Below are positions 34,931 through 60,895 of a stretch of 64,000 bases of DNA, piece by piece. Position numbers and translations under genes: made by a program. The number at the start of each line of letters is the position of its first letter. Position 1 is the first letter of the stretch. This DNA comes from Lunularia cruciata (taxonomy: Eukaryota; Streptophyta; Marchantiopsida; Lunulariales; Lunulariaceae). The notes below the pieces were generated by a model. That model was given only the letters and a program-made list of their open reading frames with translations, was not told the origin of the DNA and did no database searches. The DNA lies in assembly GCA_948567375.1 (NCBI GenBank), contig OX419755.1, forward strand, positions 20,786,517-20,850,516, written 5' to 3'.

Positions 34931-35196
34931 TGAGGCTCTTGGCCCTCCTCAAATTGTCCTTGAACAATCGGCTTGATTCACACTGCAAAAACAAACTTAT
35001 CTTCCTCCAGAGCTTGTTCTATGGCTGCTTCACTAACAAACTTCCCATCTAGGGACTCATCTTTCTTTAAAGCTTGCTCCATGGTTGGTTTCTTGGCACA
35101 CTTCCCATCTTGGGACTCATCTCCCTTCTAGACTTGCTCTATGGGTACCTTTTTGACAAACTTCCCATCTTGGGATTGACTATTCTTAGTTGTCTT
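34931..35196 (-). other. Linker of C with short internal repeats
   Basis: The plus strand has three near-repeats of CAAACTTCCCATCTTGGGA-like sequence (near 35036, 35097 and 35157), about 60 bases apart, in the linker between protease and RT of C. TCTT at 35193-35196 is the left flank of A. Confidence 0.6.
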
Positions 35197-37090: not shown

Positions 37091-37091
37091 A

Positions 37092-38158
37092 TTGACTCTG
37101 AGTTGGAGTTCGACACATGAGCTGATTCAGTTGAGAGTGCACTTGGTGTGTCCGCACCGTCGTTGTGAGACATGGACGAGATTTATGAGGCCTCCAAAGG
37201 CCCTAGGCATTACTCTGGTACAATGGGTACCATTGAGTTGGATGACTTCATCCAGGAGTTTGACAGTTGGTGTGATCTGTAGCAGATACGGAACCCGACT
37301 TTGTTCACACCCTTCATGGCATGGAAGAGGTTGTTTCAGCATCTAGAAGGTCCGCCGATGGATGACTACCATGAGTTCAGGAGAGCTCATTTGGAGGAGA
37401 TTGAGTTATGGAGACAGTATTGGTCTCCACACTATATCTGCATCACTTCAGGCTCAATGGCCAGGAGTAGATTGGCTGTACCCACGAGTTCAAGCTCAAG
37501 TAGTGTTGGTGGAGCTAGTGGAGGTGCACTAGCTGGAGATAGTGCTACTACAAGTGGAGGTACCGCTGCAGGAGGTGGTGTGGTACCGGGGTTTAACCCC
37601 ATGGTGGAGTTCTTCCTATGTTTGAGGCAGAACTACCAAGGAGTGCGGACTGACAAGCTGAGGAGCTTGCAGGAGTTCCAGCGGAAGGCTGGAGAGAGCC
37701 TACGTGAGGCATACACTCACATGAGGTGGCTGATCAATTTCACTCAGGGAGTTACTGAGGCCCAGGCAGTCCAATTTTGGTATGGGATACTAGATAGGGA
37801 GTTGCGACGTAGAGTTTGTGATGCTACGTCGTTGCAGGCTAATTCGCCCACTTTGGCAGTAGTCTTTGGTTTGGCTGAGCGTATTGAGCTCAATATGGTG
37901 GAGGAGAGAGTGGTGACATCTGGATTTGGTAGGGAGACCTCATCTATGGCTGTGACTTCTTCTAGAGTGCAGCAGAGTGCACCACGCCCAGTTGATTTTC
38001 GAGGACAAGGTGGACAGCGCTGATCCTATGGAGCGAGTAGAGAGCCTAGTGGAGTTAGACCCTTACCCTCATTTTTGAGTCAGCAGCAGCCAGTGAGTGG
38101 TGGTGTTGCTTGTTGGACTTGTGGTGGAACTCACCATAGGAGAGAGTGTACTCAGGGC
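37092..38158 (+). pseudogene. gag of A, N-terminal part (fossil)
   Basis: The frame at 37301-38023 (240 codons) contains MVEFFLCLRQNYQGVRTD and RKAGESLREAYTHMRWLI, the Ty3 retrotransposon-gag capsid pattern, after a Ser/Gly-rich spacer. A Cys/His cluster CWTCGGTHHRREC follows near 38111-38149. The next bases are the insertion point of F, and the second half continues at 45963. Broken. Confidence 0.82.
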
Positions 38159-38837
38159 TGTGAGCCGGCCTGTCTCTCACTCAGGATGAACCTCTGATGG
38201 CTATTATGGTAGCGCACCATGGACTAAGAAGGCAAGGAACCCCAACTCCATCATACTCCTCCAAGGCTAACACTCCAAGACTCAAGACATTGCTCACTAG
38301 AGAACTCGATGAGAGAGAGATAGTTGCAAATGAAAGGATGATGAGTACCTCCTCACCCCTTGTTTATATACTTGTGAAATAGTTACGTACCAAAGTTACT
38401 AATTACCGTAGTAACTCAAGTTACTAGACTAAAAGTCAAGTAAAGTCAAAAAGTAGAAAGGAATATCCATTCACATGGGCATATTCCCCTTATCTTGACC
38501 CAACCACTAAAGCAAGGATTCCTTCACATGGGCTATCCTTGGACTAAAGAAGAATCCAAAACAAAAAGGCTTGCGGGCCCAAGAGTTCTCAACTCTTTCC
38601 CCAAAGCCAAACACCTAAGAATAATACCAAGTCAACACACTAAAATTCAAAATAGTGGTGCTCATCTTTTCTACTTCCTCTAAAGTAAGGTCCCATCTAT
38701 CTTAGCTATGACTAACTTTAGCTAACCATGACTAATATAGAACCATCCTTTATCTCTATATAAATAATATGTCTTAAGTACTTGTAATACCAAGCTAAAT
38801 ATCACAATACCACACACATGCACAAATGGGTGTTACA
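38159..38837 (-). repeat. 3' LTR of F
   Basis: 679 bp and nearly identical to 45280-45958. It is preceded on the internal side by the G-rich tract GTCCGGGGGTAAA (minus strand, 38838-38850), the polypurine-tract position. Confidence 0.96.
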
Positions 38838-39041
38838 TTTACCCCCGGACTAAGTTTTCACTTTGTCCTCAAAGTGAAGGTCTCTCTACCTTCTATGGTA
38901 CATCTTCAACTTATCATGGTTAATCCTATCAAAGTATCTTCCTCCCAACTCCTTGAGATCATAGGTGTAATTGCCCCACACCTTCTCCACTATGAAAGGT
39001 CCAAAGTACTTAGGCAAAAACTTCTTTTGCACTCTCTTGAA

Positions 39042-39767
39042 TCAAATGGAATCAAACAACATTACCCAATCACCTTCTTTGAAAGGCTCCACCTTCTTCT
39101 TGTCTTGCCTCTTATCATAGCTCTCCTTTTGTTTCCTTTGGGCTTGCTCCACTTGAACCATAGCAACTGCTCTTGCCTCTTCCAACTCCATGAGTTGATC
39201 CTTCCTTGACTTCTCTGCATCACCTCCTTGTGCTTTCTTCAATCTCCTATGAATGCTTTGGAAGGTAGGAAGATCAAAGTGAATAGGTAAGGTAGACTCA
39301 ATACCATACACCAATTGAAATGGAGAATATCCAGTGGAAGTTTTCATGGTTGTCCTATACTCCCACAAAACTGCATGAATCCTCTTGTCCCAATGATGTT
39401 TAGCTCCCTCCATTTCTGCATCTTTGGCCAACATCATGCACAAGGTCTGATTGGTTCTCTCTGCCAAGCCATTGGAATTTGGCTTATAGGATGTAGTTAC
39501 TCTATGTGTGATAGAGAAATGTCGTAGCATGGCTGTAGTAATGCTTCCTGTAAACTCTCCTCCTCTATCAGAAACCAACTCCAAAGGGCATCCAAACCTA
39601 GTGATAATGCGTTCATAAAGAAATCTACCCACTTCGTCTTCATTCTTGTCCCTCAATGGTCTAGCCACAACCCACTTGGTAAGGTAATCAATAACTACCA
39701 CAATGTACCGATTGTTCCTTGGGGTTCTATTAAGAGGACCTACAAAATTCAATTCCCCACTTCTCAA
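39042..39767 (-). CDS. Integrase of F, core and C-terminal part (fossil)
   Basis: An open frame of 241 codons. It shows VVVIDYLTKWVVARP (first catalytic Asp), VSDRGGEFTG (second Asp), then TSYKPNSNGLAERTNQTL with the catalytic Glu, then a charged C-terminal region rich in Glu, Lys and Gln that ends EPFKEGDWVMLF. The N-terminal zinc-binding half lies in the adjoining frame. There is no chromodomain after it. It would join element DNA to the host chromosome. As for other parts of F, treat as a fossil copy. Confidence 0.9.
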   Translation of the reverse strand: MRSGELNFVGPLNRTPRNNRYIVVVIDYLTKWVVARPLRDKNEDEVGRFLYERIITRFGCPLELVSDRGGEFTGSITTAMLRHFSITHRVTTSYKPNSNGLAERTNQTLCMMLAKDAEMEGAKHHWDKRIHAVLWEYRTTMKTSTGYSPFQLVYGIESTLPIHFDLPTFQSIHRRLKKAQGGDAEKSRKDQLMELEEARAVAMVQVEQAQRKQKESYDKRQDKKKVEPFKEGDWVMLFDSI

Positions 39768-40980
39768 AAGGTCCTAGCAATGGAATTGATCTAAGTGGTG
39801 GAGTGGATGTAGACTTTCTAGCAAAAGCTTGACAAACATGACAAGTTTTGCAATAATCAAGACAATCCTTGAAAATCCCTCTCCAATGATAACCTGCATC
39901 TAGAATCTTGAAAGCAGTCACCTTTCCTGCAAAGTGTCCTCCACATACTGTACTTTCATGAAACTCCTTTATGAGTAGGATAGCCTCTTCCTTACCCACT
40001 GCTCTTTGAAGTAGACCATCTGCTCCTTGGTGAAAAAGAATATCCTCCACCATTGTGTAAGGTCTAGATCTTGCTGCAAGGGCCTTCCTCTCCCTAGCAT
40101 ACATCCCTTCTAGATAGTTACCTCTTGTCACAAAATCCACAATCTCCTTGTACTCCATTGGAATCTCTTGAGTGAATGAGATTGTCATGAGCTCCTCATC
40201 CGGGAAGGAATCATCTACTGGCTCATCTCCATCATGATCATAGGCTCTAGATAACAAATCAGCATTTGCATGTTTCTTCCCTGGCCTATCCTCAATTGTG
40301 TAGTCATACTTAGACAAGAGTATCATCCACCTTGCTAGTCTCCCTTCAACATTAGGCTTGTTGAAGATGTACTTCAAAGCCTTGTGATCCGTGACAATTG
40401 TGGCTTTCCCTCCAATCAAGTAGTGTCTAAACTTCTTGAGACCAAAGATCACTGCCAACCCTTCTCTCTCCGTGACAGAGTAGTTCTTCTCTGCTGAAAC
40501 CATCTGCCTACTAGCATAAGCTATTGGATGATCATGCCCATCTTGGTCTAATTGACTAAGAGTGCATCCTATAGCTACATTAGAAGCATCATTGTAGAGG
40601 ATGAAAGGCTTACTCCAATTAGATTTAGCAAGAATTGGAGCTACAACAAGGGATTGCTTGAGCTCCTCAAAAGCTTTGAGAGCCTCCTTGTCTTCCAAAA
40701 TCACCATGTAATCTACACCCTTCTTCATGTAGATGGTCAATGCATAAGCCTTGTTGGAAAATGAGAAGATGAACCTCCTATAGTACCCAACCATTCCCAA
40801 GAATTGGCGTAATTTTGTCAAGCTTGAAGGGAATGGAAGGTCTGAGATTTTCCTCACCTTCTCAGGATCAACTGCTATTCCATCCTTGGAGATGATGTGC
40901 CCCAAAAGTAGATCTTCTTCACATCCAAAAATGCACTTCTCTGGGTTGAGTGATGCATTTGCCTCATCCAAGCGTTGCAA
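39730..40980 (-). CDS. RT thumb, RNase H and integrase zinc-binding part of F (fossil)
   Basis: An open frame of 416 codons. Residues 1-80 are the RT connection (NPEKCIFGCEE, LRQFLGMVGYYRRFIFSF). RNase H follows with YNDASNVAIGCTLSQ, PIAYASRQM, TEREGLAVIFGLKKFRHYL and TDHKALKYI. The region near residues 330-395 carries EFHESTVCGGHFAG and CKTCHVCQ, the HHCC zinc finger of integrase. This is the standard Ty3 order. Confidence 0.92.
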   Translation of the reverse strand: MQRLDEANASLNPEKCIFGCEEDLLLGHIISKDGIAVDPEKVRKISDLPFPSSLTKLRQFLGMVGYYRRFIFSFSNKAYALTIYMKKGVDYMVILEDKEALKAFEELKQSLVVAPILAKSNWSKPFILYNDASNVAIGCTLSQLDQDGHDHPIAYASRQMVSAEKNYSVTEREGLAVIFGLKKFRHYLIGGKATIVTDHKALKYIFNKPNVEGRLARWMILLSKYDYTIEDRPGKKHANADLLSRAYDHDGDEPVDDSFPDEELMTISFTQEIPMEYKEIVDFVTRGNYLEGMYARERKALAARSRPYTMVEDILFHQGADGLLQRAVGKEEAILLIKEFHESTVCGGHFAGKVTAFKILDAGYHWRGIFKDCLDYCKTCHVCQAFARKSTSTPPLRSIPLLGPFEKWGIEFCRSS

Positions 40981-40988
40981 GACTTTGA

Positions 40989-42455
40989 TTAGGTGCTCAA
41001 AGTGCTCCTCCTTGCTCCCATAGACACAAAAACATCAATGAAATCTCTCACAAATTTCCCAATGAAAGGTTCAAATACCTTGTTCATGAACCGTTGGAAT
41101 GTGGCTGGAGCATTGCAAAGCCCAAAAGGCATGACCTTGAAAGCATAAGTTCCCCAAGGTGTGGTGAATGTGGTGAGTTGTTGATGCTCTGGTGCAATCT
41201 TGATTTGGTTATATCCACTATAACCATCTCCAAAACTGTACCTCTCATGACCTGCAACCTCCTCCAAGATCTCATCAATGAATGGCAATGGGTAGTAGTC
41301 CTTCTTGGTAACAGCATTGAGCTTCTTGTAATCCACACATACCCGAAGCTTGCCATTCTTTTTCTTCACAATGACAATTGGAGACACCCATTCGGAATTC
41401 TCCACCTCAAAGATAAATCCAGCCTCCTTGAGCTTATCAATCTCCTCCTTCACAACCAAAGATATTGGTGGGCTAATGCGACGTTGCTTTTGGCGGATTG
41501 GTCTTGCATGTGACTCCACCTCTATCTTGTGCTCCTCCAAGGTGACTTCCTTCAAATCCTTGTAACTAAAAGCAAACACATGGATGAACTTGCGGAAAAT
41601 CTCCTCAAATCTCACCTTCTCCTCCTTGGTAACATTTGGGCCATACTTGAGGGTAGATAACCTTCTCTCTACCTCCTCAAGTGTCAATGGTGATTTATCT
41701 GGGTCCTTCAAAACCTCTGGCTTAGGTGCAAAATCCATAGCACACAAAGGATACACATCTGAATCAGATTCAGATTCATCCTCCTCCGTGGAAGTCTCCT
41801 CTTCCATGCTTGTGTCCACACCTGAAGCTCCTTCTTCAGAATCTGATTCCCAATAATCAGAAGATGGGGTATCTGAATGTGAAGTGTTGGTGGTGTTAGT
41901 CATAGGAACAATGACTCTATGGTTTGATGGCCCAATCCTCAAGTACCCTTTGTTCCATCGATCAGTTGTGCGTGCTGCTCTCAACCATGGCCTCCCAAGA
42001 AGTAAGTCATAGCTTGAATCCTTCAAGACTTGGAAAGTCATGAGATTTTGAACTCCCATAACTGAAACTACCACCTTATCCATCACCCCTACTGATTGAA
42101 CTTGTTGCTTGTTTGCCATGCTCACCACAAATGTTGAAGGTCTTGAGGGTATCATACCCAACTTCTTCATCAACCTTTCTGACATGGCATTCACTGCTGA
42201 TCCTCCATCAACCAATGCATCCTTGATGTTGTGACCATTCACTCTCACATCAATCTTGGAGGCATATTCACAAGCCTCCCATGGTGCTGGCTTGGTATCC
42301 ACCACCCCCATTGATACTGGAACTTTTGCCTTCTTCTTCTTCTTGCTCCTTGTAGAACTCAAACCACCTCTAAGCTCCTTTCTCAAGGTAGGGTTCAAAG
42401 CAATTAATTGGCCCACTGTGATGTTAGCCTTGTGACTACCAACATCCTCCAACAC
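40989..42455 (-). CDS. Protease and RT of F (fossil)
   Basis: An open frame of 488 codons. Residues 78-180 are the aspartic protease (ALVDGGSAVNAMSERLMKKL, then YDLLLGRPWL). An acidic Ser/Glu/Asp linker follows (about 210-240). The RT begins about residue 290 and shows KLRVCVDYKKLN, YPLPFIDEIL, FGDGYSGYNQIKIAPEHQ and VMPFGLCNAPATFQRFMN. The palm continues into the next frame. The DGYSGYNQ form and lack of a chromodomain place it outside the chromoviruses. Confidence 0.92.
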   Translation of the reverse strand: MLEDVGSHKANITVGQLIALNPTLRKELRGGLSSTRSKKKKKAKVPVSMGVVDTKPAPWEACEYASKIDVRVNGHNIKDALVDGGSAVNAMSERLMKKLGMIPSRPSTFVVSMANKQQVQSVGVMDKVVVSVMGVQNLMTFQVLKDSSYDLLLGRPWLRAARTTDRWNKGYLRIGPSNHRVIVPMTNTTNTSHSDTPSSDYWESDSEEGASGVDTSMEEETSTEEDESESDSDVYPLCAMDFAPKPEVLKDPDKSPLTLEEVERRLSTLKYGPNVTKEEKVRFEEIFRKFIHVFAFSYKDLKEVTLEEHKIEVESHARPIRQKQRRISPPISLVVKEEIDKLKEAGFIFEVENSEWVSPIVIVKKKNGKLRVCVDYKKLNAVTKKDYYPLPFIDEILEEVAGHERYSFGDGYSGYNQIKIAPEHQQLTTFTTPWGTYAFKVMPFGLCNAPATFQRFMNKVFEPFIGKFVRDFIDVFVSMGARRSTLST

Positions 42456-43711
42456 ATTGTAGTTCCATTGTTGCTTGAGATCAAGAAGTCCTCCATCCCC
42501 AACTTCTTCCTTGGAGTCTTTGTTGTTGATGGTGTTGAGGTGCGAGTACTCCTAGTTGACATAGGAGTATCCTTGCTTGAAGTAAATCTTTGAGAAGAAT
42601 GAACATCCTCTGCAAAACGAGCTCTCTTCTTCTCTTGTGCCAAAAGCTCCAAATTAAGACCCTTGGAGTTTGAGCACTCTCCCTTCTCATACTTGCTCTC
42701 AACCACATCTATGGATGCTATCCCCTTACCTTTTTTGGGATTAGGAGCCACTTGGGTTTCACTACCTCCCTCTTTCTCTCTATTGGCTCCCTCATAACCC
42801 CTTCCTCCATGGTAAGTAGAATTTGGGCAATTCCTTTGGATATGGCCTCTTCCTCCACAACCAAAACAATTTCTATCATTGAAATTGTTGGCTAGTTGGC
42901 CTCCTCTATATGGATAGTTTCCATAACTCCTAGGCCCTCTCCCTACATTCTGATCCACCTCTCTCTTCTCCCATAGTTGCACCACATTGATCTTGAGATC
43001 CGCAAGTTGTTCTGTGATGGTTTGGAGTGGATCTTTTGGTGGAGGTGCAAGAACTGGAGCAACTACTACTTGTGGTGCAACCCTTGTCACCAAAGTATCA
43101 GAAGTTCCGCCATACTTGTAGCCTTGAGGAGGATGCACAACCTCCTTCACCACCAAATCACTCTCATCCCCTTCCAAACTCTCCTCCATACGAATTGCGA
43201 TCTTGATAGCTTCAACCTTGGAAGAAGGTTTCTCATATCTCACCTTGCTTCTAATTTGTGGTCTCAATCCTCCCACAAAATTCTTGGTGAGCATGGCCCC
43301 TATGCCAATCATTGTAGTCTCCACATCATCCCCACCCTTCCTCAACACTATGCGAAATCTGGACTCCAACTTTTCCACTCTTTCCACATAGATCCTCACT
43401 TTCTCTCCATCTCCTTGCTTGAGAAATGTAACCTCACTCATCAATCTCTCATAACTCTCATCAGGAAGAAAGTTCTCAATGAGTGCTGAAGTCAAAGTCT
43501 CCTAAGACTCCTCTTCCCCCTCTCTCCTCTCTCTCTTTTGGTATTCTGACTCATACCATGTAAGTGCTGCATCCTCAAAGAAATCTGGTAATAATGAGGC
43601 CCACTCATTCTTCCTCCTCTCATTGTTTCCTATGCAAGCTCTCTTGAAGTCTCTCACAAAGGCCTCCACATCTTCTCCATCCTTGCCAAAGAAAACCGGA
43701 AGTTTCCCCAT
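42404..43711 (-). CDS. gag of F (fossil)
   Basis: The capsid region starts at 43711 (MGKLPVFFGKDGEDVEAFV, LTWYESEYQKRERR) and continues in a second frame of 363 codons. That frame has FLKQGDGEKVRIYVERVEKL, and the zinc knuckle CFGCGGRGHIQRNC near residues 215-228. The C-terminus is rich in Ser/Thr/Lys. It would form the particle shell. The end overlaps the protease frame, as is common in Ty3-like elements. Confidence 0.9.
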
Positions 43712-43946
43712 CTTAACCCCTCACTATCTTTCTTTTCTCTCAAATTTTTTTTTCTCTTTTCTTTTCTCTCACTCTATTACTAATAGAGTATATACATGAC
43801 TAACACCATCTGAGAATAATCCACTCTAGGGAACACAAAAGGTTCAGGTTGCTCCAAGATTTCTATAGCAACATCAAATCCTAGAGTGCAAATTAATCTA
43901 ACTCTCATGGATAGTTTATTCATAAGTTGAAAGATTATCTCCATCA

Positions 43947-44444
43947 CTAATCTTGAGAACTAGCTGATGAAGGTGGTAGTATTTCTGTAGCTGTACTAAG
44001 ACTCTCTCCAAGATCCTTCACCAAAGTTTCCAAAAGTGCTTTTACTCCACTACATTCATGTCCTTTTGGAAGTCCTTCAACTCCACAAACCTCACATAAC
44101 TCCTTGGTCTTAGATCTTCTCCCTCCCAATCTTGGTGAAGAAGGTCCAACATGCAAACCCAAGTCAAGTAAGCCTCTCCTTTCCCTCAATCTCTTGCTCT
44201 CAAAGGTCAATGGACATGAACTTGCCTTATGTCCCTTCTCTCCACATAGAAAGCACTTAGACTCACTCTTTCCTCCAAGTGGTGTAGGTTTTTGGATCCT
44301 CTCAACACTCTCTTCAAATTCTATTGTAAACTCTCTTTTCCTCAAATCCACCCCTACAATCACCTCAAACCCTTGGGGAACCTTGCATAATCTCAATTTC
44401 CACTCTTGATGACCCTCCATGTTCCCCAAGATGAATCTAAACAA
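43947..44444 (-). CDS. Extra zinc-knuckle frame between LTR and gag of F
   Basis: An open frame of 165 codons upstream of gag on the element's sense strand. It has a full CCHC knuckle CFLCGEKGHKASSC, preceded by KPTPLGG, then an Arg/Lys-rich stretch, and a second Cys/His cluster CEVCGVEGLPKGHEC that is not a standard knuckle. It is not part of the gag at 42404-43711, which has its own knuckle. It could be an added element gene or a captured host zinc-knuckle fragment. I do not recognise the protein. Confidence 0.55.
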   Translation of the reverse strand: MFRFILGNMEGHQEWKLRLCKVPQGFEVIVGVDLRKREFTIEFEESVERIQKPTPLGGKSESKCFLCGEKGHKASSCPLTFESKRLRERRGLLDLGLHVGPSSPRLGGRRSKTKELCEVCGVEGLPKGHECSGVKALLETLVKDLGESLSTATEILPPSSASSQD

Positions 44445-45260
44445 TCAAACATGCTTTTTGTTGATCTCAAACTTCTCATGCATGAGATCTCCACTCTGCA
44501 GAATTGACCCTTCCTCACAATGTCACTCAAATCTCCCAACCAATATGTCAAAGTCCTCTGAAATTTTTCACACTTGATCACAACTCCAGGACGTCCCTTC
44601 CTGCAAAATTTCAGATCTTTTCATCAAGCTATTTGGCCTAGACACCCTTCTATTCAGCACCCATATTTCAGATTTGGTCTGAAAACCACCCCCCTCACTT
44701 CAAAACTCATAACGCCTTGTGCAAAAACGATCTCTCTCTAATTTTTGTGGCAGCAGGTAGTATACAATGCACTGAAACTTCTTGGAAATTTTCAGGACAA
44801 TTAACCGAAAATTGAAGAAATGGCAGACTTTGTACAATTTTCCAGAGAGCATGCAGTTACGGGAGCACTTTACCCTATCAACTTTCAAAAATTCTAGCCC
44901 AGTGCGCATAGAAGCTCTCTCAATAATTTCAAGTGTGATAACTGAAAGATAAGCCAAGCTATCATGTGTAGAAATCTCAAGTCCAGATCTCAAACTTGAG
45001 ATTTTGCCCAAAATCACCTTAATCCCCAAAATCTGCAATCCACCTCACACAATCTCTCCAATTCCTCTCATGTGTACAAGATGTACAAAATCACCTCAAA
45101 GACATCATAATGAACTACAGGGTATACAAATAGATCTTGGTTCTCTAACATAAGTTCAGCCCTCTCCTCTCCTAATGTTCTCTCCAAGTGAGCTCTCATA
45201 GCCTCCTTCTGCCTAATATAGAATTGGACGCGGAACATTATCTTGCCTTCTAGAGAGGTC
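44445..45260 (-). other. Leader of F
   Basis: The region between primer site and extra frame. An open frame (45068-45301) of 77 codons begins inside the LTR end and has no motif. Nothing else is supported. Confidence 0.4.
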
Positions 45261-45279
45261 CTGGCAACGGAACCAAAAA
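45261..45279 (-). other. Primer-binding site of F
   Basis: The minus strand reads TGGTTCCGTTGCCAG five bases after the LTR end. It resembles the TGGCGCCGTTGCC type used by Athila/Tat-like elements more than the Met type. The tRNA is not settled. Confidence 0.55.
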
Positions 45280-45958
45280 TGTGAGCCGGCCTGTCTCTCA
45301 CTCAGGATGAACCTCTGATGGCTATTATGGTAGCGCACCATGGACTAAGAAGGCAAGGAACCCCAACTCCATCATACTCCTCCAAGGCTAACACTCCAAG
45401 ACTCAAGACATTGCTCACTAGAGAACTCGATGAGAGAGAGATAGTTGCAAATGAAAGGATGATGAGTACCTCCTCACCCCTTGTTTATATACTTGTGAAA
45501 TAGTTACATACCAAAGTTACTAATTACCGGAGTAACTCAAGTTACTAGACTAAAAGTCAAGTAAAGTCAAAAAGTAGAAAGGAATATCCATTCACATGGG
45601 CATATTCCCCTTATCTTGACACAACCACTAAAGCAAGGATTCCTTCACATGGGCTATCCTTGGACTAAAGAAGAATCCAAAACAAAAAGGCTTGCGGGCC
45701 CAAGAGTTCTCAACTCTTTCCCCAAAGCCAAACACCTAGGAATAATACCAAGTCAACACACTAAAATTCAAAATAGTGGTGCTCATCTTTTATACTTCCT
45801 CTAAAGTAAGGTCCCATCTATCTTAGCTATGACTAACTTTAGCTAACCATGACTAATATAGAACCATCCTTGATCTCTATATAAATAATATCTCTTAAGT
45901 ACTTGTAATACCAAGCTAAATATCACAATACCACACACATGCACAAATGGGTGTTACA
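45280..45958 (-). repeat. 5' LTR of F
   Basis: 679 bp. It differs from the 3' copy at about seven single bases, for example near 45508, 45530 and 45619. Confidence 0.96.
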
Positions 45959-45962
45959 AGGC

Positions 45963-46480
45963 AGCGGACCTGATACCTCTGGTGCACCATAGCCAGCACA
46001 GAGGCAGTGTGAGCATTGCCACAGATTTGGTCACACTAGTGACCGGTGTTTTGACCTACACCCGGAGTTACGGAGTGGTAGGGCTGCTATGGCAGGTAGT
46101 AGAGGAGCTCCAATTCATGAAGGACGAGGTGGTAGAGGTGGTGGTAGAGGATCTACACCTAGTAGGGGTGTAGTACCTGCCCTTACTTCTGACACAGCTA
46201 TGGCTACTCGGATTGAGCAGTTGGACCAGAGATTGGCTAGTATGGCTATTGCTCAGAGGAGATCAGATTCGGGTGATGAGGCTTCCACCTCATATGCTGG
46301 TGATAGAGATGCTTTGGACTTCATGTGCGGAGCAGCATAGGTGGATGCATCTACAGCAATGACTAGGAGTGCAGTACGTGCTCCAGAGCCTAGAGGAGCA
46401 TCAGTGGAGTTGGACCCACAGAGAGGAGAGGTTGGGAGACAAGTCAGACTTCCCCAGTCTTTCATGCTATTTGAGGCATT
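45963..46480 (+). pseudogene. gag of A, C-terminal part (fossil)
   Basis: It continues A's gag after F. A canonical zinc knuckle (Cys codons at 46008, 46017 and 46047, His at 46032; CX2CX4HX4C) is followed by a Gly/Arg-rich stretch (GSRGAPIHEGRGGRGG region, 46090-46150) and a coiled-coil-like segment. The same order is seen in B at 62640-63020. Broken. Confidence 0.75.
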
Positions 46481-46493: not shown

Positions 46494-47456
46494 ATGGTTC
46501 CTAGACATCCCAATGTAGGTGTGGTAGGTGGTGATGGAGTACATGATGGACTACCTGCTAGTCAGCCACCTTCTACTACAAAGACTAAGTCTAGCATGAT
46601 GTGGGGGGCGGCTCAGCTGATTATGCGGCGTCCTTTGTTTTCAGCCAGTGACATGTTTACATTGGGAGTTGACCCAGCCCTAGTGTTCCAGTTGGCTGCC
46701 ATGTTGTGTGAGAGTAGAGATGGTGCAGTTCCTACTACTAGAGCAGAGGTGGTTGGTAGTGGAGCTGACTTAGATGAGGAGCATGGGATCCATTCAGCGA
46801 CCAATGGTTTATGGCAGGCAACAGCGGCTAGACTAGAGGAGTTGCTAGCTAGACCGGCCTTTGAGAGAGCACGGTTTACACCTGGTGTTGTCCTCTTGGA
46901 TAACCAGAGGGGGATTTTTTGTTTGGTGGGACCTTCAGGGAAGGTGTATACACCACAGAGAGTCTTGTTAGACTCTGGTGCATAGCCCCTTATGTTGGGG
47001 AAGGCTGTAGTTGTCGGTCTGGAGTTATGGAAGACCGATGTGGAGAGGTGTCCATTTCAGATCCAGACATCTCTTGGTGGTGGTTTGACACAGTACATCA
47101 CACATGGAGAGCTTGTTGTCCAGGTTCAGCCTGGTCATCCGACTGATAGCTCGGTGGTGAGAGCTCAGGCTATTGTGACGATAGCTAAGTCATATGATGT
47201 GCTAGTTGGAGGAGCAGTGTTATACCCCATGGGTTTTAGCATTGACTATTGGGAGGAGACAACCTCTTATAGACCTGGTTGGCAGTCTGGTGAGGGACGT
47301 GTATGTCACCTACCAGTACGCTTTAGTAGTGGCAGTCTTGGCTCACTACAGTCCGGGACCATGGCAGCATCAATTTTAGCTTTCAGTGGTGCAGTTACTT
47401 GGCCTGGTGACTTGTTGGAGGGGAACACCCATGTAGAGAGGATACTCCAGTACTAG
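46494..47456 (+). pseudogene. Protease of A (fossil)
   Basis: The N-terminal part is a linker. LLDSGA near 46968-46985 is the aspartic protease active-site motif, and YDVLVGGAVLYPMGFSIDYW (about 47195-47255) corresponds to the second conserved protease block. It would mature the polyprotein. A conserved piece (RFSSGSLGSLQSGTMAAS) links it to the methyltransferase and is also found in B at 60900-61140. Broken. Confidence 0.8.
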
Positions 47457-47639: not shown

Positions 47640-48650
47640 GACACCTTTGGATACCACACTCATTGCTTGGCAGTATCCAGTAGAGGGGATATGCCTATTG
47701 GAGTTATTTGGTGGGATCAACACCGGACTAGCTGCAATGTTACAGGCGGGTATACGAGTACAAAGGTACTTATATGTAGAGAGAGATGAGACTGCTAGGC
47801 AAGTCTCTCTACATCATGTTGCACACTTGGCCTATAGGTATCCGGAGTTATTACCAATGTCAGCAATCAGAGGTTACCAGAAGGCCCTACCAGGAGACAT
47901 TTCCTTACTGGGGGTGCATGACCTAGAGAGACATAGGCCTATTCACTTGGTGATTTCTAGATGGCCATGTCAGGGACATACACGTGCGGGCCGTGGTTTG
48001 GGTCTTCAAGATCCTTGTTTTGGTGTGTTTTGGGAGATGTTACGGATACTAGACATCTCCAGGTTCATCAGTCTGTTTCTCCAGCTAACCTTCTGGAGAA
48101 CGTTCCTTTGTTGGATGATTCTCGCACCAGAGTGGTGGCGAGTACACATCAGGTCCATTCTTGGATGGGACTTGCTGTATTGTTAAATGCAGCCAGAGTG
48201 GGATCACGGGCTCATCGCCTTTGTCTTTGGCGGACAAACCTCTTACCCAGAGAGGTTCTACAGTGTGCTTATGATGGGATTCAACGACTGGACCACATTC
48301 TTGTTGATGATATCTTGGATGTTGGGCGTCAGTCTCAAATAGTGGTAGTGGCTGATAGGTCACCTATGGCAGTGGTGAACCTAGTTGGACAGCCTAGAGC
48401 TGCATTTCCTACACTCATGAGTTTCCCAAGGTCTCATGCTTTTTGAGAGGGAGGACCTGGACTTGTTTGAGACTCATAGTTACAGCAGTTGGTGGAGCCC
48501 AACGCTGATGAGAGAGAGCAGGCAATGGGTTTTTGCACCGGTATTACCGCTATTCCAATAGTGTCAGAGGCATCCAAGCGTCAGGTGTTAGGTCAGGCTA
48601 TGGACCTGAACTGTTTGACCAAGATTGTGAGCCTTGGCTTGGCAGAGCAG
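47640..48650 (+). pseudogene. C5-cytosine DNA methyltransferase domain of A (fossil)
   Basis: The domain would transfer a methyl group from S-adenosylmethionine to cytosine in DNA. Motifs in order: I, LELFGGINTGLAA (SAM binding, from about 47695); II, YVERDE (about 47773); IV, the catalytic Cys in WPCQGHTRAGRG (PCQ at 47965); VI, ENV (48096); VIII, AHRLCLWRTNL (48210-48242); IX/X, EREQAMGF (48510) and RQVLGQ (48579). The match is closest to the DNMT3 type. Motifs run I to X, unlike plant DRM enzymes in which the order is permuted. It is about 320 residues, the size of a full catalytic domain, and lies between protease and RT. It is broken like the rest of A. Confidence 0.85.
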
Positions 48651-49170
48651 CATAGGATGCGCTTGATAGGCATCACCACTTGGACACTTGTGAGCCCTGT
48701 GCCTATCGAGACGATTCAGGCACATGCTAGGGGCGATGGACCGAGTGGACATGGTATTCTTGGGACACATCCAATAGCTACTAGAGAGAGTGGTCTACTT
48801 GGAGTCCATCCAGGTGAGCGTGGACTACTTGGATTACACCCTTGGTCCACATGGGATGCAGCTAGAGGACGTGTGGAGCTTGCAGCCAAAGTGGAGGGAG
48901 TTTTTCATATAGAGGTTGGGACCTCTAGTGGTCGGGAGCATGACACTATTGCTCCCATAGGCCCAGTGTAGCAGTCAATCAGTACGTCTTCCACTCCTAC
49001 TGCAATTACAGAGGATACTTGGGAGCCAAATCTTGGACCCAAGCTTACTGGAGGGGAAAGACGGAGGGTTTGGAGGTTCTTGAGGAGTCACACGAGTTGT
49101 TTTGCCTTCAGTATGAAGGATTTGGGTGCTCTAAAGGGACCTGGTATACGGATTGAGCTGACTAGCAACA
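48651..49170 (+). pseudogene. Linker between methyltransferase and RT of A
   Basis: Contains a small internal repeat, G(I/L)LG(T/V/L)HP in three copies (about 48750-48845), then a charged stretch up to the RT start. No domain is recognised. Confidence 0.5.
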
Positions 49171-50639: not shown

Positions 50640-51690
50640 GAGACATTCATGATGATGTCTTAGTGATAGACTATCTTTGCACTGGTGTTGTGGGTGGCAC
50701 AATTGGGGCCAAGGAGAGAGACCGTGTTCTTCAATGAGCCAGACGGTTCAGATTGGAGGGTAGACACCTTTTGCGTGTATGGGAGGATGGTAGAGTGCGA
50801 GTAGTACCACTTCCAGCATAGAGACCACAGTTGGTCCGTCATGCTCATGAGGAGATAGGACATTTTGGAGTAAAGCGTACATATAGCTTACTCCAAAGTC
50901 ATTATTGGTGGCGCGGTATGCAAACCAAGGTACAATAGTTTGTTGCCAGATGTATGGTTTTTGACCGAGTTAGAGCATCATTCAATGCTCCTACGCCACA
51001 GTTACACCCATTACCTATCATGGGATTGGGTTACCGTTGGAGTTTGGACTTTGCCAGACCTTTACTGCTGACTGTGAGACATCATCGGTATGTTTTGGTG
51101 ATGGTGGAGCACTTCTCCAAGTGGATTGAGTTGGTGGCACTTCCTGACAAGTCTAGTGAAGGGACAACTTACTCGTTCCTGGATCGAGTTCTTAGTCGTT
51201 TTGGTGCACCAGCTGAGGTTTTGACTGAGTAGGGTATAGAGTTCAAGAGGGAGTTTCAGGTCTTGTGTGACAAGGCTTTGATTGATTATCGTATTACATC
51301 TCAAGATCACCCTGAGGCAGATGGCTTAGCAAAGAGAGTGATTCAGAGATGAAGAGAGGATTGCAAAAGTATGGTTTGCAGAGAGGTCACTTGGGAGATT
51401 GGGATCTCCAATTACCTTGGTTGGCCATGGGCTATTGGTTCAGCCGGCAAGCCTCCTTAGCATCCTTCTCTCCATACTTTCTACTCTATGGACGAGATCC
51501 AGATTTACCTGCAGCCATTCGTCGAGATGCTACTATAGTTTTGGACTTGGATGACCCTGATGTATGGATGAGTGCATGTTCTCAACGGGCATAGATCTTT
51601 CGGAGAGTGATGCCGATGGCCCTTGAGAACTTGGCGATTGCTCAGCATAGAGATATTTTACGCTATGCTACCATTCGAGGAGGAGGTTAT
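50640..51690 (+). pseudogene. Integrase of A (fossil)
   Basis: The zinc-binding part is near 50830-50945 (RHAHEEIGHFGVKRTY, HYWW). The core has GYRWSLDFARP with its first Asp (51047), YVLVMVEHFSKWIEL, and FGAPAEVLTE where the second Asp region lies (about 51205-51235). The last catalytic region is near 51310-51330 (PEADGLAKR). The C-terminal part resembles the IN C-terminal beta domain. Broken. Confidence 0.88.
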
Positions 51691-52085
51691 AGACCCTCGA
51701 TCCGTCAATTTCATCCAGGTGACTATGTATATCTACACTAGACAGCACCGATGACACTTGATGTTTCTATAGGCCGCACTATCTTGAGAGTGCGCAAGGT
51801 TTTGCCATCTGGAGTCCTTGTGTTAGAAGGACGTGATGGTGTTGTTTGGAAGGATTATGTGCGCAATTGTGCGCCATGCCACCTTCCAAACATTGATGGT
51901 ACTATGGACCCAAGCTTGGCACTTGTACGTGCAAGCTTGAGGTGTATGTTATGTGGCTCTTCTGGTAGAGCTGCTACTATGTTAGTGTGTGATAGTTGTT
52001 CGAGAGGATGGCATATGGCATGTATGACTCCTCCCCTCACGGTGGTTCCTCAAGAATAGTGGTTATGTCCTAGATGTACTTGACC
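51691..52085 (+). pseudogene. Integrase tail and PHD finger of A (fossil)
   Basis: The tail (RQFHPGDYVYL, VRKVLPSGVLVLEGRDG) is followed by a Cys4-His-Cys3 finger: CMLC (about 51946), CDSCSRGWHMAC (about 51990-52025), PPL, then WLCPRC at 52062-52079. The spacing and the Trp two residues before the seventh Cys fit the PHD consensus. PHD fingers commonly read the H3 tail. It sits where chromoviruses carry a chromodomain. B has the same domain in the same place. Confidence 0.85.
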
Positions 52086-52241
52086 TATAGCTAGTTCATT
52101 CTTTGTATGGTATAGATTGCAGACAGGCGACTAATGATGGGGCTCCATAACACCCGGCCTCCTGATCTTTGCCCATTAGAGGGTATACCATATACTTAGA
52201 GTAGATGGCTATTTGGAGTTAGAGGGACCTAACCGCCAGCT

Positions 52242-52356
52242 AGGGGGCAATTGTGGCACTTTAGATTCTATGTATGACTTATGTGTGAGTTGTGCTTCTA
52301 TAGTGTACGATGTTGACAGTGATGTATGTTGTGTAGCGATGTATATACACATGACA
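52242..52356 (+). repeat. Polypurine tract and terminal block X of A
   Basis: AGGGGGCAAT (52242-52251) looks like the plus-strand primer. The 105-bp block after it starts TGTGGCACTTTAG and ends CACATGACA. The same block ends B at 22978-23081. The TCTT duplication follows. Confidence 0.7.
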
Positions 52357-52384
52357 TCTTACTCAGAGATGCCAAACAACCTAA

Positions 52385-54332: not shown

Positions 54333-54554
54333 ATACCACTCTGCTTGACCTAGGTCTCTAACCCTAACATGCCATTGATGGTACATCAGATGGTGCAAAT
54401 GGTGCAAGTGATGATGAGTTCCACCATGTGATAAGTAGCCTTACATGAAATCTGACCGCCAATAAGTAGTCCATGAGTAACTATCAAAATACTATGACTT
54501 CCAACACTACTCCAACATCCAAGCAAATTAGCTTAAGCACTACAAATGTTATCA
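54333..54554 (-). repeat. 3' LTR of B, proximal part
   Basis: LTR core of the A/B family starting TGATAACATTTGTAG (minus strand). It is cut by C and continues at 23308. It holds the GACCTAGGTC-like block also present near 1797. Confidence 0.8.
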
Positions 54555-54556
54555 AT

Positions 54557-54630
54557 ATCATACACTATAGAAGCACAACTCACACATAAATCATATATAA
54601 ACTGTAAAGTGCCACAATTGCCTCCCTATT
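54557..54630 (-). repeat. Polypurine tract and partial block X of B
   Basis: GGGAGGCAAT followed by TGTGGCACTTTACAG, the same join as at 52242 in A. About 60 bases of X are kept before the LTR core. Confidence 0.65.
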
Positions 54631-54785
54631 TGCCGGTTAGATCTCTCTAACTCCAAAAAGCCATCTAATCCAAGTATGTGATATGTCTTATGTTGTGCAA
54701 AGATCAAAAGACCATGTGCTATAGAGCCCCACTATTAGTCAAGTATCTGCAATTTAGACTATATAAAGGATGAACTAGCTATAGG

Positions 54786-55130
54786 TTAAGTACATCTAAA
54801 ACGTAACCTTTGTCCTTGAGGAACCACCATGTGGAGAGAAGTCAAACATACCATATTCCATCCTCTCAAACAATTATCACACACCAATATAGTAGCAACT
54901 CCACCAAAAGAGCCATATAACATACACCACAAACTTGTAGGTACAAGAGCCAAGCTTGGGTCCATAGTGCCATCAATGTTTGGGAGATGGTATGGCACAC
55001 AATTATGCACATGATCCTTCCAAAAAACACCATCACATCCTTCCAACATGAGGATTGTTGAAGGCAAAACCTTGTGCACTCTCAAGATAGTGTGACTTGT
55101 AGTAACATCAAGTATCATTGGTGCAATCTA
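54786..55130 (-). pseudogene. PHD finger and integrase tail of B (fossil)
   Basis: Parallels 51751-52080 of A: VHKVLPSTILMLEGCDGVFW, then the HLPNIDGTMDPSLALV linker, then the finger region with CDNCLRGWN and VVPQG. The finger is decayed but clearly aligned. Its presence in a second, diverged copy shows it belongs to the element family. Confidence 0.8.
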
Positions 55131-55269
55131 TTGTACATATACATAGTCATCTAGATGAAATCAATGGATTGAGGGTTTATAACCTCGTCCTTGAATAGTA
55201 GCATAGCATAAGGTATTCCTATGTTGAGCAATTGCTAAGTTCTCAAAGGCCATTGGCATCACTCTTCAA

Positions 55270-56180
55270 AAGATCTCTACCCATTGAGAGCATGCACTCA
55301 CCCATACGTCTTAATCATCCAAGTCCAAAACTATGATAGCATCACAAAAAATTGTTGTAGGTAAATTTGGATCTCATCCATAGGGTAGAAAGTATGAAGA
55401 GAAGGATGCTACAGAGGCTTGCCAGCTGAACAAATAGCCCATGGCCAACCTAGGTAATTGTAGATCTTAATCTCCCAAGTGATCTCTTTGCAAACCAAAC
55501 TTTTGCAATCCTCTCTTCACCATCTGAACTACTTTCTTGCTAAGCCATCTGCCTCAAGGTGATCTTAGGAGGTAGTATGATGATCAATCAAGGCCTTGTC
55601 ACATAAGACCTAGAACTCTTCCTAGAACTTTGTACCCTGATCAGTCAAAAACACAATTGGTGCACCAAAATAACTAACAACTCCATCTAGGAACAAGTAA
55701 GCCATCACTTCACTGGACTTGTCAAGAAGTGCCATCATCTCAATCCACTTGGAAAGGAGTTCTACCATAACCAAAATATATTGGATGATGTCTCACAATC
55801 AATGGTAAAGATCGAACAAAGTCTAAACTCCAATGGTAACCCAATCTTATGATAGGTAATGGGTGTAATTGTAGCATAGGAGCATTAAATGATGCTCTAA
55901 CTTGCTCACAAACCAAACATATAGTAACAAATTGTTTACATTGGTCTGCATACTACACCACCAATAATGACTATGGAGTAAGCTATATGTATGGTTTACT
56001 CCAAAATGTCCTAGCTCCTCATGAGCATGACATATAAACTATGGTCTTTGAGATGGAATTGGTACTACTTGCACTCTACCATCCTCCCATACACAAAGAA
56101 GGTATCTACACCCCAATCTAAATTGCTTAGTTTTCTAAAGAACATGGTATCTCTCCTTGGCACCAGCTATACCACCAACA
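55270..56180 (-). pseudogene. Integrase of B (fossil)
   Basis: On the minus strand it aligns with 50700-51600 of A: the zinc-binding region near 56000-56050 (HAHEELGHFGV-like), then the core near 55640-55860 with the WIEMMALLDKSS-like stretch, then the region leading to the tail. Many breaks and almost no CpG. Confidence 0.75.
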
Positions 56181-56479
56181 ATACTAAGACACCATCATAA
56201 GTGTCTAAGTGATGAATTATTTTTGTGAATTAAATCTGCACCGTTGGATCTATGACCTTAAAAACTTGTTCTATGTGTGCTAAGAGAAATACCACCAAGG
56301 CCTCAAAAAATATGTATAGAGAGGTAGATGCATGCTAACCTAGCACCATCTCCTCATCTATCTCACCATGCTAATGTGCTTTGGTCTGATCTTACTAGTT
56401 GGAATATGGATTTCTACTCAACCCATCTATATCATGGCTCACCACTCTAGGTCTATGAATAACTATGAAATCATACTCT

Positions 56480-57600
56480 TGTAAAATAAGAGCTCATCAT
56501 GCAAGTTTCCTTGAAAGCTTGTTGTACTCCATCATCCACTTTAGTGGTTGATGATCAATGATTAGAATGAATGGGTTACCAAATAGGTAACATTGGAAAT
56601 ATGCTACTACCAATATTGTTGCCAAGCGCTCTCTCTTATATGAACTATAATTTGCAATTCTTGAATTGTTAGAGCAATTAGCATAAGCCACCACAAATTC
56701 CTTCTCATCATCCTATTGCATGAGTATTGCTGCAAGCCCAAATGCACTCCAATCAATATGAACCTGGAATGGTAGTCCTTTGATTGATCTCCTAAGAATA
56801 GGGGCAAATGTCAACCTCTCCTTGAGCTTTGTAAAAGCTCTCTCCCGCTCATCTCCCTGACACCACTCTTGCGTAAGCTTGGTCAACTTTGTTAAGGCCT
56901 TGGCAATGGCACTAAATCCTCTAACATATCAGTGATAGAATTTCATCAACCCAAGGAATGTTGTACTTTGCTCACATCCATAGGCCAAAGAATATGTGCA
57001 ATGGTGTACACCTCGGTCTATTGAACACCAAGTCCTCCATGGTAGATAGTGTGACCCATATACTCAACTTGCTCATAGAAGAATCTACATTTCTCAAGAT
57101 CTAATTTGAGTCCATGAGATCTCAACCTCTCAAACACCTCCAACAAATGCCTCTCATGCTCCTCCAAAAAAGTATTATAGACCAAAATGTCATCAATATA
57201 TAGTGAGTAAAATTCAATCCTACTAAGATCTTATCTATGATCCTTTGGAACTTGGCATGAGTGTCCTTTAACCCAAATGGTAAGAACCTCCATTGATATA
57301 ATGCATCCTTGCCATAAGGATCAAGAGCCCAAAGTGCTATCTTGGACTTTTCTTCCTCCTTGATTGGCAACTGATTATATCTTGCTCAAAGATCCAAAGT
57401 ATAGAAGATCTTTCTTGACCAATTGCATCAAAGATCTCCTTTGTTGTAGGCATATTGGTCCACCCTAGTTTTTAGTTAATAGGACAATAATCTCTACATA
57501 TTTGCGTATTTATGTAGTTGCCATGCATATCTTTCTTGGCTATATCACTAAATTTTAAGCATACTCTCCATATGAAATCTCCACCAAACTAGCCTCAAAA
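56480..57600 (-). pseudogene. Reverse transcriptase and RNase H of B (fossil)
   Basis: RT blocks ALYQWRFLPFGLKDTHAKFQ (57122-57370) and RNase H blocks YKRERLATILVVAYFQCYL and ILIIDHQPLKWMMEY (56497-56694) align with A. Broken and older. Confidence 0.85.
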
Positions 57601-57849
57601 AGGTCTTTACTCTAGCTCTTAATCAATACGCTCTCCATGTCATTACATATGTAAGGATATCAAAAAATAGGTTACCATTATTAAGCTCAATCAAATACCA
57701 TTTCCTTTTAGAGCACCCAAATCCTTCATATTGAAGACAAAATAACTTATGGAGCTCCTCAAGAACCTCCAAGAATACCCTAACCACTTGGTCTATCACC
57801 CCCAAACATGTAATTGAATTGTCTTGATAGGCATAAAGCTCACAAGTGT

Positions 57850-58605
57850 TCAAGTGGTGATGGCTATCAAGTGTATCATACGTTGCTCTTCCAAGCCAAG
57901 GCTCACAATCTAGGTCAAAAAGTTCAGGTCCATAGCGTGACTAAACACCTAATGCTTGGATGCCTCTAATATTATTGTAATAGAAATAATACTAGTAAAA
58001 AAAACCCATCACCCTCTCCCTCTCATTGGCATTGCACTCTACCCATGGCTGTAACTATGAGTCCCAAACTAGTCCAATATCTCCTTCTCAAAAAGCATGG
58101 GAGCTTGGGAAACTCATAAGTGTGGTAAAGAGGCTTTGGGCTATCCAACAAGGTTCACCAATGCCATAGGGGACCTATCAGCCACTACCACTATCTAAGA
58201 TTAGCGCCCACGTCCAAAATCTCATCAATAGTAAGGTAGTCTAGTAGTTGAATCCCATCATGAGCATGTTGTAGAACCTTTCTAGGTAAGAGGTTTGTCC
58301 ACCAAAGATGATGACAATGAGTTTGTCATCCCACTCTGACTACATCCAACAACACTGTAGGTCCCATCCAAGAATGGACCATTATGTGTACTTGCCACCA
58401 CTTGTGTATGAAAACCACCCATCAAAGAGATATTTTCCAAAATGTAGGCTAGAGAAATAAACTAATGAACTTGGAGATATCATAATATACGTAACATCTC
58501 CCAAAACATACCAATATGGAGATCTTCTAGACCTTAACCTTAGCCATCATAGGTATATCCTTGACATGGTCATCCAAAAATCACCAAATGAATGAAACAA
58601 TGTCT
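57850..58605 (-). pseudogene. Methyltransferase of B, C-terminal part (fossil)
   Basis: The minus strand aligns with 47950-48640 of A: the catalytic-loop region near 58560-58595, the ENV/AHR region about 58240-58340, and the last motif near 57900-57960. Interrupted from its N-terminal part by insertion H. Confidence 0.7.
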
Positions 58606-58610
58606 CTCTA

Positions 58611-60510: not shown

Positions 60511-60895
60511 CTCTCCAAATCTTGCGCTTCCAATAAGGAAATGTATCTTGGTAGGGTCTTTTGGTAACCTTTAACTATTGATATTAGTAATAACTCAAGA
60601 TACCAATAGGCCAAGTGTGCCACATGATGGAAAGAGATTCACCTAATAGTCTTATCTCTCTCCACATTCAAGTACCTTTGTACTCATATACTTGCCTATA
60701 GTGCCGCAACTAGTCTAGAGCTAATCCTATTAAACAACTCTAGTAGACATACTCTCTCTATTGGACACTACCAAGTAATGAGTGTGGTATCCAAAGATGA
60801 CAAGGTAAAAGACTTTGGAAGCTCATCCTCACATTGGTCTCTTGGTGGTACAAAGGTTCCACTCCAAGCTTGTTACACCCAATTTATCTACACAT
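60511..60895 (-). pseudogene. Methyltransferase of B, N-terminal part (fossil)
   Basis: Aligns with 47545-47930 of A, including the motif I region (near 60720-60770) and the motif II region. CACACTTGGCCTAT and nearby words are shared with A. Decayed. Confidence 0.75.

What the first reader, a model, noticed from the sequence alone, without database searches (positions are those of the whole stretch)
47640..48650. DNMT3-like DNA methyltransferase inside a Ty3-like retrotransposon
Element A carries a full set of C5-cytosine methyltransferase motifs (I, II, IV with PCQ, VI with ENV, VIII, IX/X) between protease and RT. Seen directly: the motifs and their position. Known: methyltransferases captured by retrotransposons have been reported in dinoflagellates and charophyte algae. 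Inference: this family may have marked its own DNA, or hidden among methylated host DNA. If the host is a land plant, this would extend that phenomenon.
Basis: partly seen in the sequence, partly recalled or inferred. Interest (0 to 1): 0.93.

Follow-up and report, generated by a model that had tools for sequence, protein, structure and literature searches.

The report
Retrotransposon carrying a DNA methyltransferase
A decayed jumping gene in what looks like a liverwort genome carries a DNA-methylating enzyme of the DNMT3 kind; many closely similar, recently inserted copies with long open frames lie elsewhere in the same genome, so the family was recently active in a land plant, a group that had been said to lack such elements.

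Summary

New anatomy: gag-PR-methyltransferase ends in UAG-CAR-YYA, the type I leaky stop (all 46 junctions found among 48 sequences given), and RT-RNaseH-INT-PHD follows in frame. So the enzyme is probably made at Gag level and Pol by readthrough. Other relatives (mostly unnamed metagenomic, one chlorophyte) carry the enzyme after RT instead. Self-methylation of cDNA is inferred, not shown.

The parts
35190..35636 (+). 5' LTR of element A (about 440 bp, 92-94% to LTRs of two other copies)
   Evidence: blastn of whole copies L015 and L023 against the window
35637..38158 (+). 5' untranslated region and gag part of element A, up to the nested insertion
   Evidence: blastn of L015 (query 74-3074 to window 35190-38158, 92.6%)
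38159..45958 (.). unrelated LTR element nested in element A; not part of the system. LTRs 38159-38837 and 45280-45958, TG..CA, 99.0% identical
46008..46049 (+). gag zinc knuckle CEHCHRFGHTSDRC
46965..47260 (+). retroviral-type protease region, LLDSGA at 46965-46982; an in-frame stop follows at 46983
   Evidence: relative P0146 carries Pfam aspartyl protease at the corresponding place in front of its methyltransferase
47695..48617 (+). C5-cytosine methyltransferase, motifs I-X; one frame to about 48051, then another; three in-frame stops within the domain; one Arg of motif VIII changed to Cys
48969..48977 (+). end of the gag-PR-methyltransferase frame: TAG CAG TCA, matches UAG-CARYYA
   Evidence: motif as in PMC5382211
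48972..50315 (+). reverse transcriptase and RNase H in the frame that follows the UAG; broken by decay stops
50850..51350 (+). integrase zinc-binding and core region (WWRGM 50906-50920, WSLDFA 51038-51055), frame shifted by decay; ends approximate
51943..52080 (+). PHD finger, C-terminal to the integrase; one decay stop at 52057
   Evidence: PF00628 E 4.1e-8; intact copy L014 E 2.2e-10
52081..52359 (+). 3' untranslated region of element A; homology to other copies ends here and no 3' LTR of A was found
54552..63188 (-). copy B of the same family, about 78-81% identical to A in DNA, heavily decayed; interrupted at 58611-60510 and 61637-62152; lacks the UAG junction stretch; a further piece lies at 63925-63999
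57769..58610 (-). copy B, C-terminal part of the methyltransferase
60511..61636 (-). copy B, protease region and N-terminal part of the methyltransferase

Best explanation
Element A is a dead copy of a Ty3/gypsy LTR retrotransposon family that carries a DNMT3-like C5-cytosine methyltransferase as a regular, selected part. SHOWN by sequence: order LTR - gag with zinc knuckle - protease - methyltransferase - UAG CAR YYA - RT - RNase H - integrase - PHD finger - LTR; many long-frame copies in the same genome; constraint on the methyltransferase in the transposing lineages; the same module in liverworts and mosses. INFERRED, likely (about 0.75): most ribosomes stop at the UAG and make Gag-PR-methyltransferase; a minority read through into RT-RNaseH-INT-PHD, so the methyltransferase is made at Gag rather than Pol dose and is carried in the particle. 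INFERRED, less sure (about 0.45): it methylates the element's own newly made cDNA before or at integration, so that new copies enter the genome already looking like host repeat DNA, or are protected from damage or recognition as foreign; the PHD finger at the end of the integrase helps choose the chromatin that receives the copy.
For: Identity: (host copy L014 to DNMT3A, 1.2e-10). Family in the host: 111 scored places, all at E 1.4e-174 or better over nearly the whole of P0001 (the best-scoring of 13363 first-look candidates); by my recount of that table 66 of 111 have no stop inside; open frames up to 1448 aa. RT frame begins in the same frame behind the stop in 26 of 26 copies L009-L034 (in L013 the aligned part ends one residue earlier). 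UAG-CARYYA: 27 of 28 sequences (copy B lacks the stretch) and 19 of 20; all 46 found read TAG CAG then CCA (44), CTA (1) or TCA (1). Control: of 250 non-junction stops in the same copies, 1 is followed by CARYYA. The second frame of L014 has its first Met at residue 48, behind a stretch (..GEERRRVWRFLRSHTSCFAFS) that has counterparts in front of RT in the relatives P0160 and P0163, so starting there would cut it off. Selection: in the methyltransferase, variants shared by 4 or more of 26 copies 12 N: 20 S (0.29 of neutral), private ones 99 N: 39 S (1.24 of neutral), Fisher p 4e-4. Catalytic Cys and ENV Glu in 26 of 26 copies. Of the 13 database proteins with an HPWxxW motif behind the enzyme, 10 end 38-45 residues after it (the others 24, 26 and 76), among them Marchantia P0130 and P0131 and Calypogeia P0128; P0134, P0135 and P0139 are labelled partial.
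Against: No activity, expression or readthrough was measured. The copies with the UAG are young (96.7-100% alike over the junction piece), so its constancy among them is partly common descent; the older copy B has lost the stretch, and DNA of the Marchantia and moss relatives could not be read. Six annotated proteins (Marchantia P0133, P0136, P0138, P0141, P0143; Sphagnum fallax P0155) run from methyltransferase into RT in one model. The first Met of the RT frame precedes Pfam's RVT_1 match (residue 121), so internal initiation is not excluded. In yeast the charophyte KnitGypsy-Dnmt3 domain gave no methylation (inconclusive in that paper). Decay at CG and CHG in these copies is shared by other repeats of the window, so it is no sign of self-methylation. 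Constraint on the methyltransferase (0.29) is looser than on RT (0.08) and PR (0.17). Six of the 26 copies had been chosen for long frames.
Confidence: 0.6

Rival explanations
1. The methyltransferase acts on host chromatin or tames the element itself: by methylating new insertions it lowers copy activity and harm to the host (self-restraint), rather than camouflaging the cDNA.
For: Self-restraint and host-directed effects are options raised by de Mendoza et al. 2018 (discussion read). Private C>T changes are three- to fourfold more frequent per site at CG (0.28) and CHG (0.31) than at CHH (0.086), as expected if inserted copies were methylated.
Against: CG and CHG rates exceed CHH also in 11 of 11 other repeat pairs of the window, the CHG excess being slight in some; whether those repeats carry a methyltransferase was not checked. 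Ordinary host silencing explains the bias. The family still reached high copy number with long frames.
Confidence: 0.2
2. The domain is a structural or nucleic-acid-binding relic: a former methyltransferase kept for binding cDNA or RNA and not for catalysis.
For: Lower constraint than RT; of the two Arg of motif VIII one is changed in 4 and the other in 2 of 26 copies; motif IV is WPCQG, not the DNMT3 type SPCN; the catalytic Cys is not among the columns at 90% or more in the 21-row alignment A2 (P0126 has Tyr there).
Against: Catalytic Cys (26 of 26), ENV Glu (26 of 26) and motif I are kept in the host copies; in the 15-row alignment A1 the Cys is invariant, and in A2 Glu and Asn of ENV are invariant.
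Confidence: 0.12
3. The UAG is not read through; it is the plain end of a gag-pro gene and Pol is made from a spliced or internally initiated message.
For: Marchantia and Sphagnum gene models P0133, P0136, P0138, P0141, P0143 and P0155 join methyltransferase to RT in one protein, possibly by predicted introns that drop the stop (their gene structures were not seen). The RT frame has a Met at residue 48, before Pfam's RT match.
Against: RT follows in the same frame behind the stop in 26 of 26 copies, the stop context fits the type I leaky motif and only 1 of 250 control stops does; the stretch before that Met has counterparts in relatives.
Confidence: 0.2
4. The methyltransferase was picked up separately by the bryophyte elements (before RT) and by the elements that carry it after RT, from related host DNMT3 genes.
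For: Two different places: 7 proteins with the methyltransferase before RT, 39 after, of 46 with both domains. The RT-first methyltransferases are not a supported clade (56/0), and the integrase tree does not separate the two kinds.
Against: Methyltransferases of both kinds form one group against 4 DNMT3/DRM outgroups (99/99); the PHD finger is shared, and in the RT tree the RT-first rows are one clade (97) next to the bryophyte rows. Only 4 outgroups, each under half filled, so weak.
Confidence: 0.25

Closest known systems
KnitGypsy-Dnmt3 of Klebsormidium nitens (de Mendoza et al. 2018, PMC5890265; abstract and sections 9-11 read)
   Same: Ty3/gypsy LTR element with a non-rearranged Dnmt3-related methyltransferase inside the element's coding frame, under purifying selection
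   Different: That one is in a charophyte alga and is described inside the Pol ORF; a term search of the text found no moss, liverwort, Marchantia or PHD. Here: land plant, methyltransferase at the end of the Gag-PR frame before a UAG, PHD finger after integrase, many recent copies. Sequence kinship to KnitGypsy-Dnmt3 could not be tested (no row named Klebsormidium among the listed hits)
SymbioDIRS-Dnmt3 and SymbioLINE-Dnmt of Symbiodinium (same paper)
   Same: Retroelement with captured cytosine methyltransferase; the DIRS enzymes methylate CG in yeast
   Different: DIRS and LINE elements, not LTR gypsy; separate capture according to the paper
Vertebrate DNMT3A/DNMT3B catalytic domain
   Same: Closest solved relatives by sequence and by predicted fold; unpermuted motif order
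   Different: 20-25% identity in the structural alignments; PCQ instead of PCN in motif IV; part of a retroelement polyprotein
Plant DRM
   Same: Related catalytic domain, weaker sequence match (1.2e-8 for 4onj and 1.6e-4 for DRM2 with P0001; 0.008 for DRM2 with the host copy)
   Different: DRM is permuted (motifs VI-X before I; recalled); this is not
Type I leaky stop UAG-CARYYA of tobamoviruses (PMC5382211, passages read); Sirevirus SIRE1 stop suppression (recalled)
   Same: UAG CAR YYA context and an in-frame continuation
   Different: In tobamoviruses it is in the replicase gene and in SIRE1 it gives an env-like protein (recalled); here it would separate Gag-PR-methyltransferase from RT-INT-PHD
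Chromoviruses (chromodomain at the integrase C-terminus; recalled)
   Same: A histone-reader-like domain at the end of the integrase
   Different: PHD finger instead of chromodomain

Membership tests
C5-cytosine DNA methyltransferase (PF00145) | profile score above curated cut-off | tested here: met
   P0001 42.7 bits and host copy L014 31.6 bits, cut-off 22. The window piece alone: 11.1 bits, not met
C5-cytosine DNA methyltransferase (PF00145) | catalytic PC dipeptide, ENV, RxR, SAM motif I, motif X | tested here: met
   found in the window, with RxR decayed to RxC; in 26 host copies Cys 26, Glu 26, the two Arg 24 and 22
DNMT3 subfamily | closest relatives are DNMT3 catalytic domains | tested here: met
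   PDB by sequence and by predicted fold
DNMT3 subfamily | branches inside DNMT3 in a tree with DNMT1, CMT, DNMT5 and bacterial enzymes | tested here: inconclusive
   only DNMT3A, DNMT3C, host DNMT3-like exon and host DRM-like exon were used; element enzymes lie together apart from them
DNMT3 subfamily | animal-type ADD/PWWP regulatory domains | not tested
   no ADD or PWWP hit appears in the Pfam scans of the two frames of L014, but this was not searched for specifically
DRM | permuted motif order (VI-X before I-V) | tested here: not met
   motifs run I to X
Ty3/gypsy LTR retrotransposon | LTRs and order PR-RT-RNaseH-INT | tested here: met
   LTR pairs of mostly 441-452 bp in 16 of 20 ten-kb copies (none in the six eight-kb stretches, which are too short); domain order
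KnitGypsy-Dnmt3 | sequence kinship of methyltransferase and RT | not testable with these tools
   no row named Klebsormidium among the listed hits
Type I stop-codon readthrough | UAG followed by CARYYA with an open frame behind | tested here: met
   all 46 junctions found among 48 sequences given
Type I stop-codon readthrough | readthrough product is made | not testable with these tools
   needs a reporter or proteomics

The most novel reading that the evidence does not exclude
A write-and-read retrotransposon: a DNMT3-like writer made at Gag dose by a leaky UAG is packaged in the particle and methylates the cDNA before integration, while a PHD finger on the integrase reads histone tails and places the premarked copy in matching chromatin. 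The module is old in the green lineage (a chlorophyte and many unnamed metagenomic relatives have the enzyme behind RT), is spread through bryophytes, and in this liverwort drove a recent burst that may account for part of its enlarged genome.
Probability: 0.3. Interest if true: 0.92.

Novelty: new variant of a known kind. Interest (0 to 1): 0.77.

Why it matters
[quoted passage not shown] This family contradicts that for bryophytes (vascular plants were not tested here) and includes the experimental model Marchantia polymorpha, where a methyltransferase-bearing element could be tested directly. The UAG placement makes a specific prediction (enzyme at Gag dose, Pol by readthrough) that a reporter can settle. 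It bears on the open question why retroelements would carry a silencing enzyme at all.

Tried and rejected
Viral contigs and prokaryote genome contigs with P0001 gave no relatives (in 21, 16 pattern matches, none confirmed). The first structure model, from 15 close sequences, was poor (pLDDT 41.8) and not used; the second, from 21 more varied sequences, has pLDDT 68.5 and its residues 1-35 and 267-294 are unreliable. RNA structure behind the UAG: none beyond shuffles (z 0.65 for L014, 0.21 for the window), so a structure-driven readthrough is not supported. Self-methylation signature: CG/CHG decay is found, but also in other repeats, so it was dropped as evidence. A second, amino-methyltransferase-like domain behind the PHD of some metagenomic relatives was suspected by eye; Pfam gives only D12 at E 0.16 in P0163, so it is unproven. 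In one search the protease row hit a chance DSGA in gag and is not used. Copy number by exact-pattern search and a random sample of the genome could not be run (below). PHD kinship to the ADD of DNMT3 was considered; Pfam's best name is the ordinary PHD finger.

Literature: eight searches on such elements and two on readthrough. In their listings, and in the passages that I read, no report of a DNMT-bearing LTR element in bryophytes was seen; most listed papers were not opened. PMC12344493 mentions DNMT3 in 'LTR Copia and DIRS' elements 'in streptophytes and dinoflagellates', citing de Mendoza (passages). A Marchantia review, a bryophyte chromatin paper, a Physcomitrella DNMT3 paper and a liverwort genome paper were looked at by term only.

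Full report
What is in the window. The window copy is dead: one frame carries motifs I-V to about 48051, another the rest to 48617; three stops lie in the domain and one Arg of motif VIII is now Cys. For that reason its own Pfam score is poor. Element A is longer than the stretch given: LTR and gag lie at 35190-38158, and an unrelated LTR element (38159-45958, LTRs 99% identical) sits in between. Copy B, 78-81% identical and far more decayed, lies on the other strand at 54552-63188.

The family in its own genome. The assembly is 566 Mb in 74 contigs and the window is C1:20786517-20850516. A search with P0001 scored 111 places, the best of 13363 first-look candidates, all at 72-74% identity over almost its full length; the tool calls such counts lower bounds. 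By my recount of that table 66 of 111 have no stop in the match; as the best-scoring places they are not a fair sample of all copies. I read 26 copies (L009-L034, six of them chosen for long frames). One frame of up to 1428 aa holds gag, protease and methyltransferase; the next, 1037 aa in L014, holds RT, RNase H, integrase and PHD, in the same frame behind the stop. LTR pairs, mostly 441-452 bp, were found in 16 of 20 ten-kb copies; 14 of these 16 pairs are 97.3-99.8% identical, the others 96.0 and 91.4%. So insertion was recent.

The junction. The stop is TAG CAG followed by CCA, CTA or TCA in 27 of 28 sequences (copy B lacks the stretch) and in 19 of 20. This is the type I readthrough motif UAG-CARYYA described for plant viruses (PMC5382211, passages). 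Of 250 other stops in the same copies, 1 has it. No RNA structure stands out behind it. Of 13 database proteins with the HPWxxW motif behind the enzyme, 10 end 38-45 residues after it, among them Marchantia P0130 and P0131 and Calypogeia P0128, three of the ten being labelled partial. Against this, six annotated Marchantia and Sphagnum proteins run on into RT. The inference is that Gag-PR-methyltransferase is the main product and RT-INT-PHD the readthrough product.

Selection. Pairwise dN/dS among 26 copies is 0.43 for the methyltransferase, 0.35 PR, 0.28 RT, 0.53 INT, 0.58 gag. Splitting by frequency is clearer: in the methyltransferase private variants are at neutral N/S (1.24 of neutral), shared ones constrained (0.29; RT 0.08, PR 0.17, INT 0.67 on 7 variants); Fisher p 4e-4 for the methyltransferase. 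Hence the enzyme mattered while the element moved, less strictly than RT.

Methylation traces. Private C>T changes per site, against L014: CG 0.28, CHG 0.31, CHH 0.086. In 11 of 11 other repeat pairs of the window CG and CHG also exceed CHH, the CHG excess being slight in some. The copies seem to have been methylated in the ordinary plant way; nothing here shows that the element's own enzyme did it.

Relatives. Named hits are Marchantia polymorpha, Calypogeia fissa, Sphagnum troendelagicum, S. tenellum, S. fallax and the chlorophyte Monoraphidium neglectum. Of the 210 proteins collected, 46 hold methyltransferase and RT: 7 have the methyltransferase first, 39 have it after RT, 33 of these in the full order RT-MT-INT-PHD. 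In the methyltransferase tree the 21 rows labelled methyltransferase-first form one clade (95/93), the 19 RT-first rows do not reach support (56/0), and all 40 stand apart from 4 DNMT3/DRM outgroups (99/99). Of those 21 rows only L014, P0136 and P0208 were seen with an RT; the others were labelled by ORF layout or kinship. In the RT tree (quick method, one outgroup from a gypsy element in L032) the RT-first rows form one clade (97), the three bryophyte-type rows another (100), with P0208 outside; the integrase tree does not resolve the split. A single capture with one change of place is the simplest reading, not proven.

Host. The genome has a DNMT3-like exon (L001, DNMT3C 2.4e-15) and exons that I read as DRM (L002) and CMT (L003) from recalled motifs, and the nearest named element relatives are liverworts. 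Eight large contigs of 60-85 Mb make up about 558 of 566 Mb. Lunularia cruciata (580 Mb assembly, bursts of Ty3/Gypsy; PMC9985172, passages) fits well, but the species is inferred, not shown.

Known or new. Capture of Dnmt3 by a gypsy element is known from Klebsormidium (PMC5890265). Not seen in print in eight full-text searches (listed under Tried and rejected): presence and recent amplification in land plants, the place before a leaky UAG, and the PHD finger. A 2019 paper states absence from 'land plants, such as tracheophytes' (PMC6338049).

Noticed in passing
window 51943-52080 and L014 7241-7375: PHD finger fused behind the integrase, kept in bryophyte and other relatives (44 of 210 proteins)
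   Followed up: partly
window 38159-45958: LTR element with 679-bp LTRs 99% identical nested in the gag of element A
   Followed up: partly
window 18671-20723, 23843-24579, 32920-33609, 61652-62150, 63189-63925: a repeat of about 740 bp in several copies with internal repeats of about 157 bp, inserted also in and beside copy B
   Followed up: no
window 27421-28682 and 21518-22164: tandem arrays with periods of about 80 bp
   Followed up: no
proteins P0160, P0163: extra C-terminal domain behind the PHD, in P0163 with DPWAGTGT and TSPW stretches, perhaps an amino-methyltransferase; Pfam D12 only at E 0.16 in P0163
   Followed up: partly
proteins P0119, P0190: element methyltransferases filed under bacterial MAGs (Obscuribacterales, Minisyncoccia), probably misbinned plant or algal DNA
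   Followed up: no
window 43947-44444 minus: reading frame with two zinc-knuckle-like clusters, inside the nested element and perhaps its gag
   Followed up: no
L001 (G000 C7:31988337-31991654): host exon of DNMT3 type, apart from the element family
   Followed up: partly
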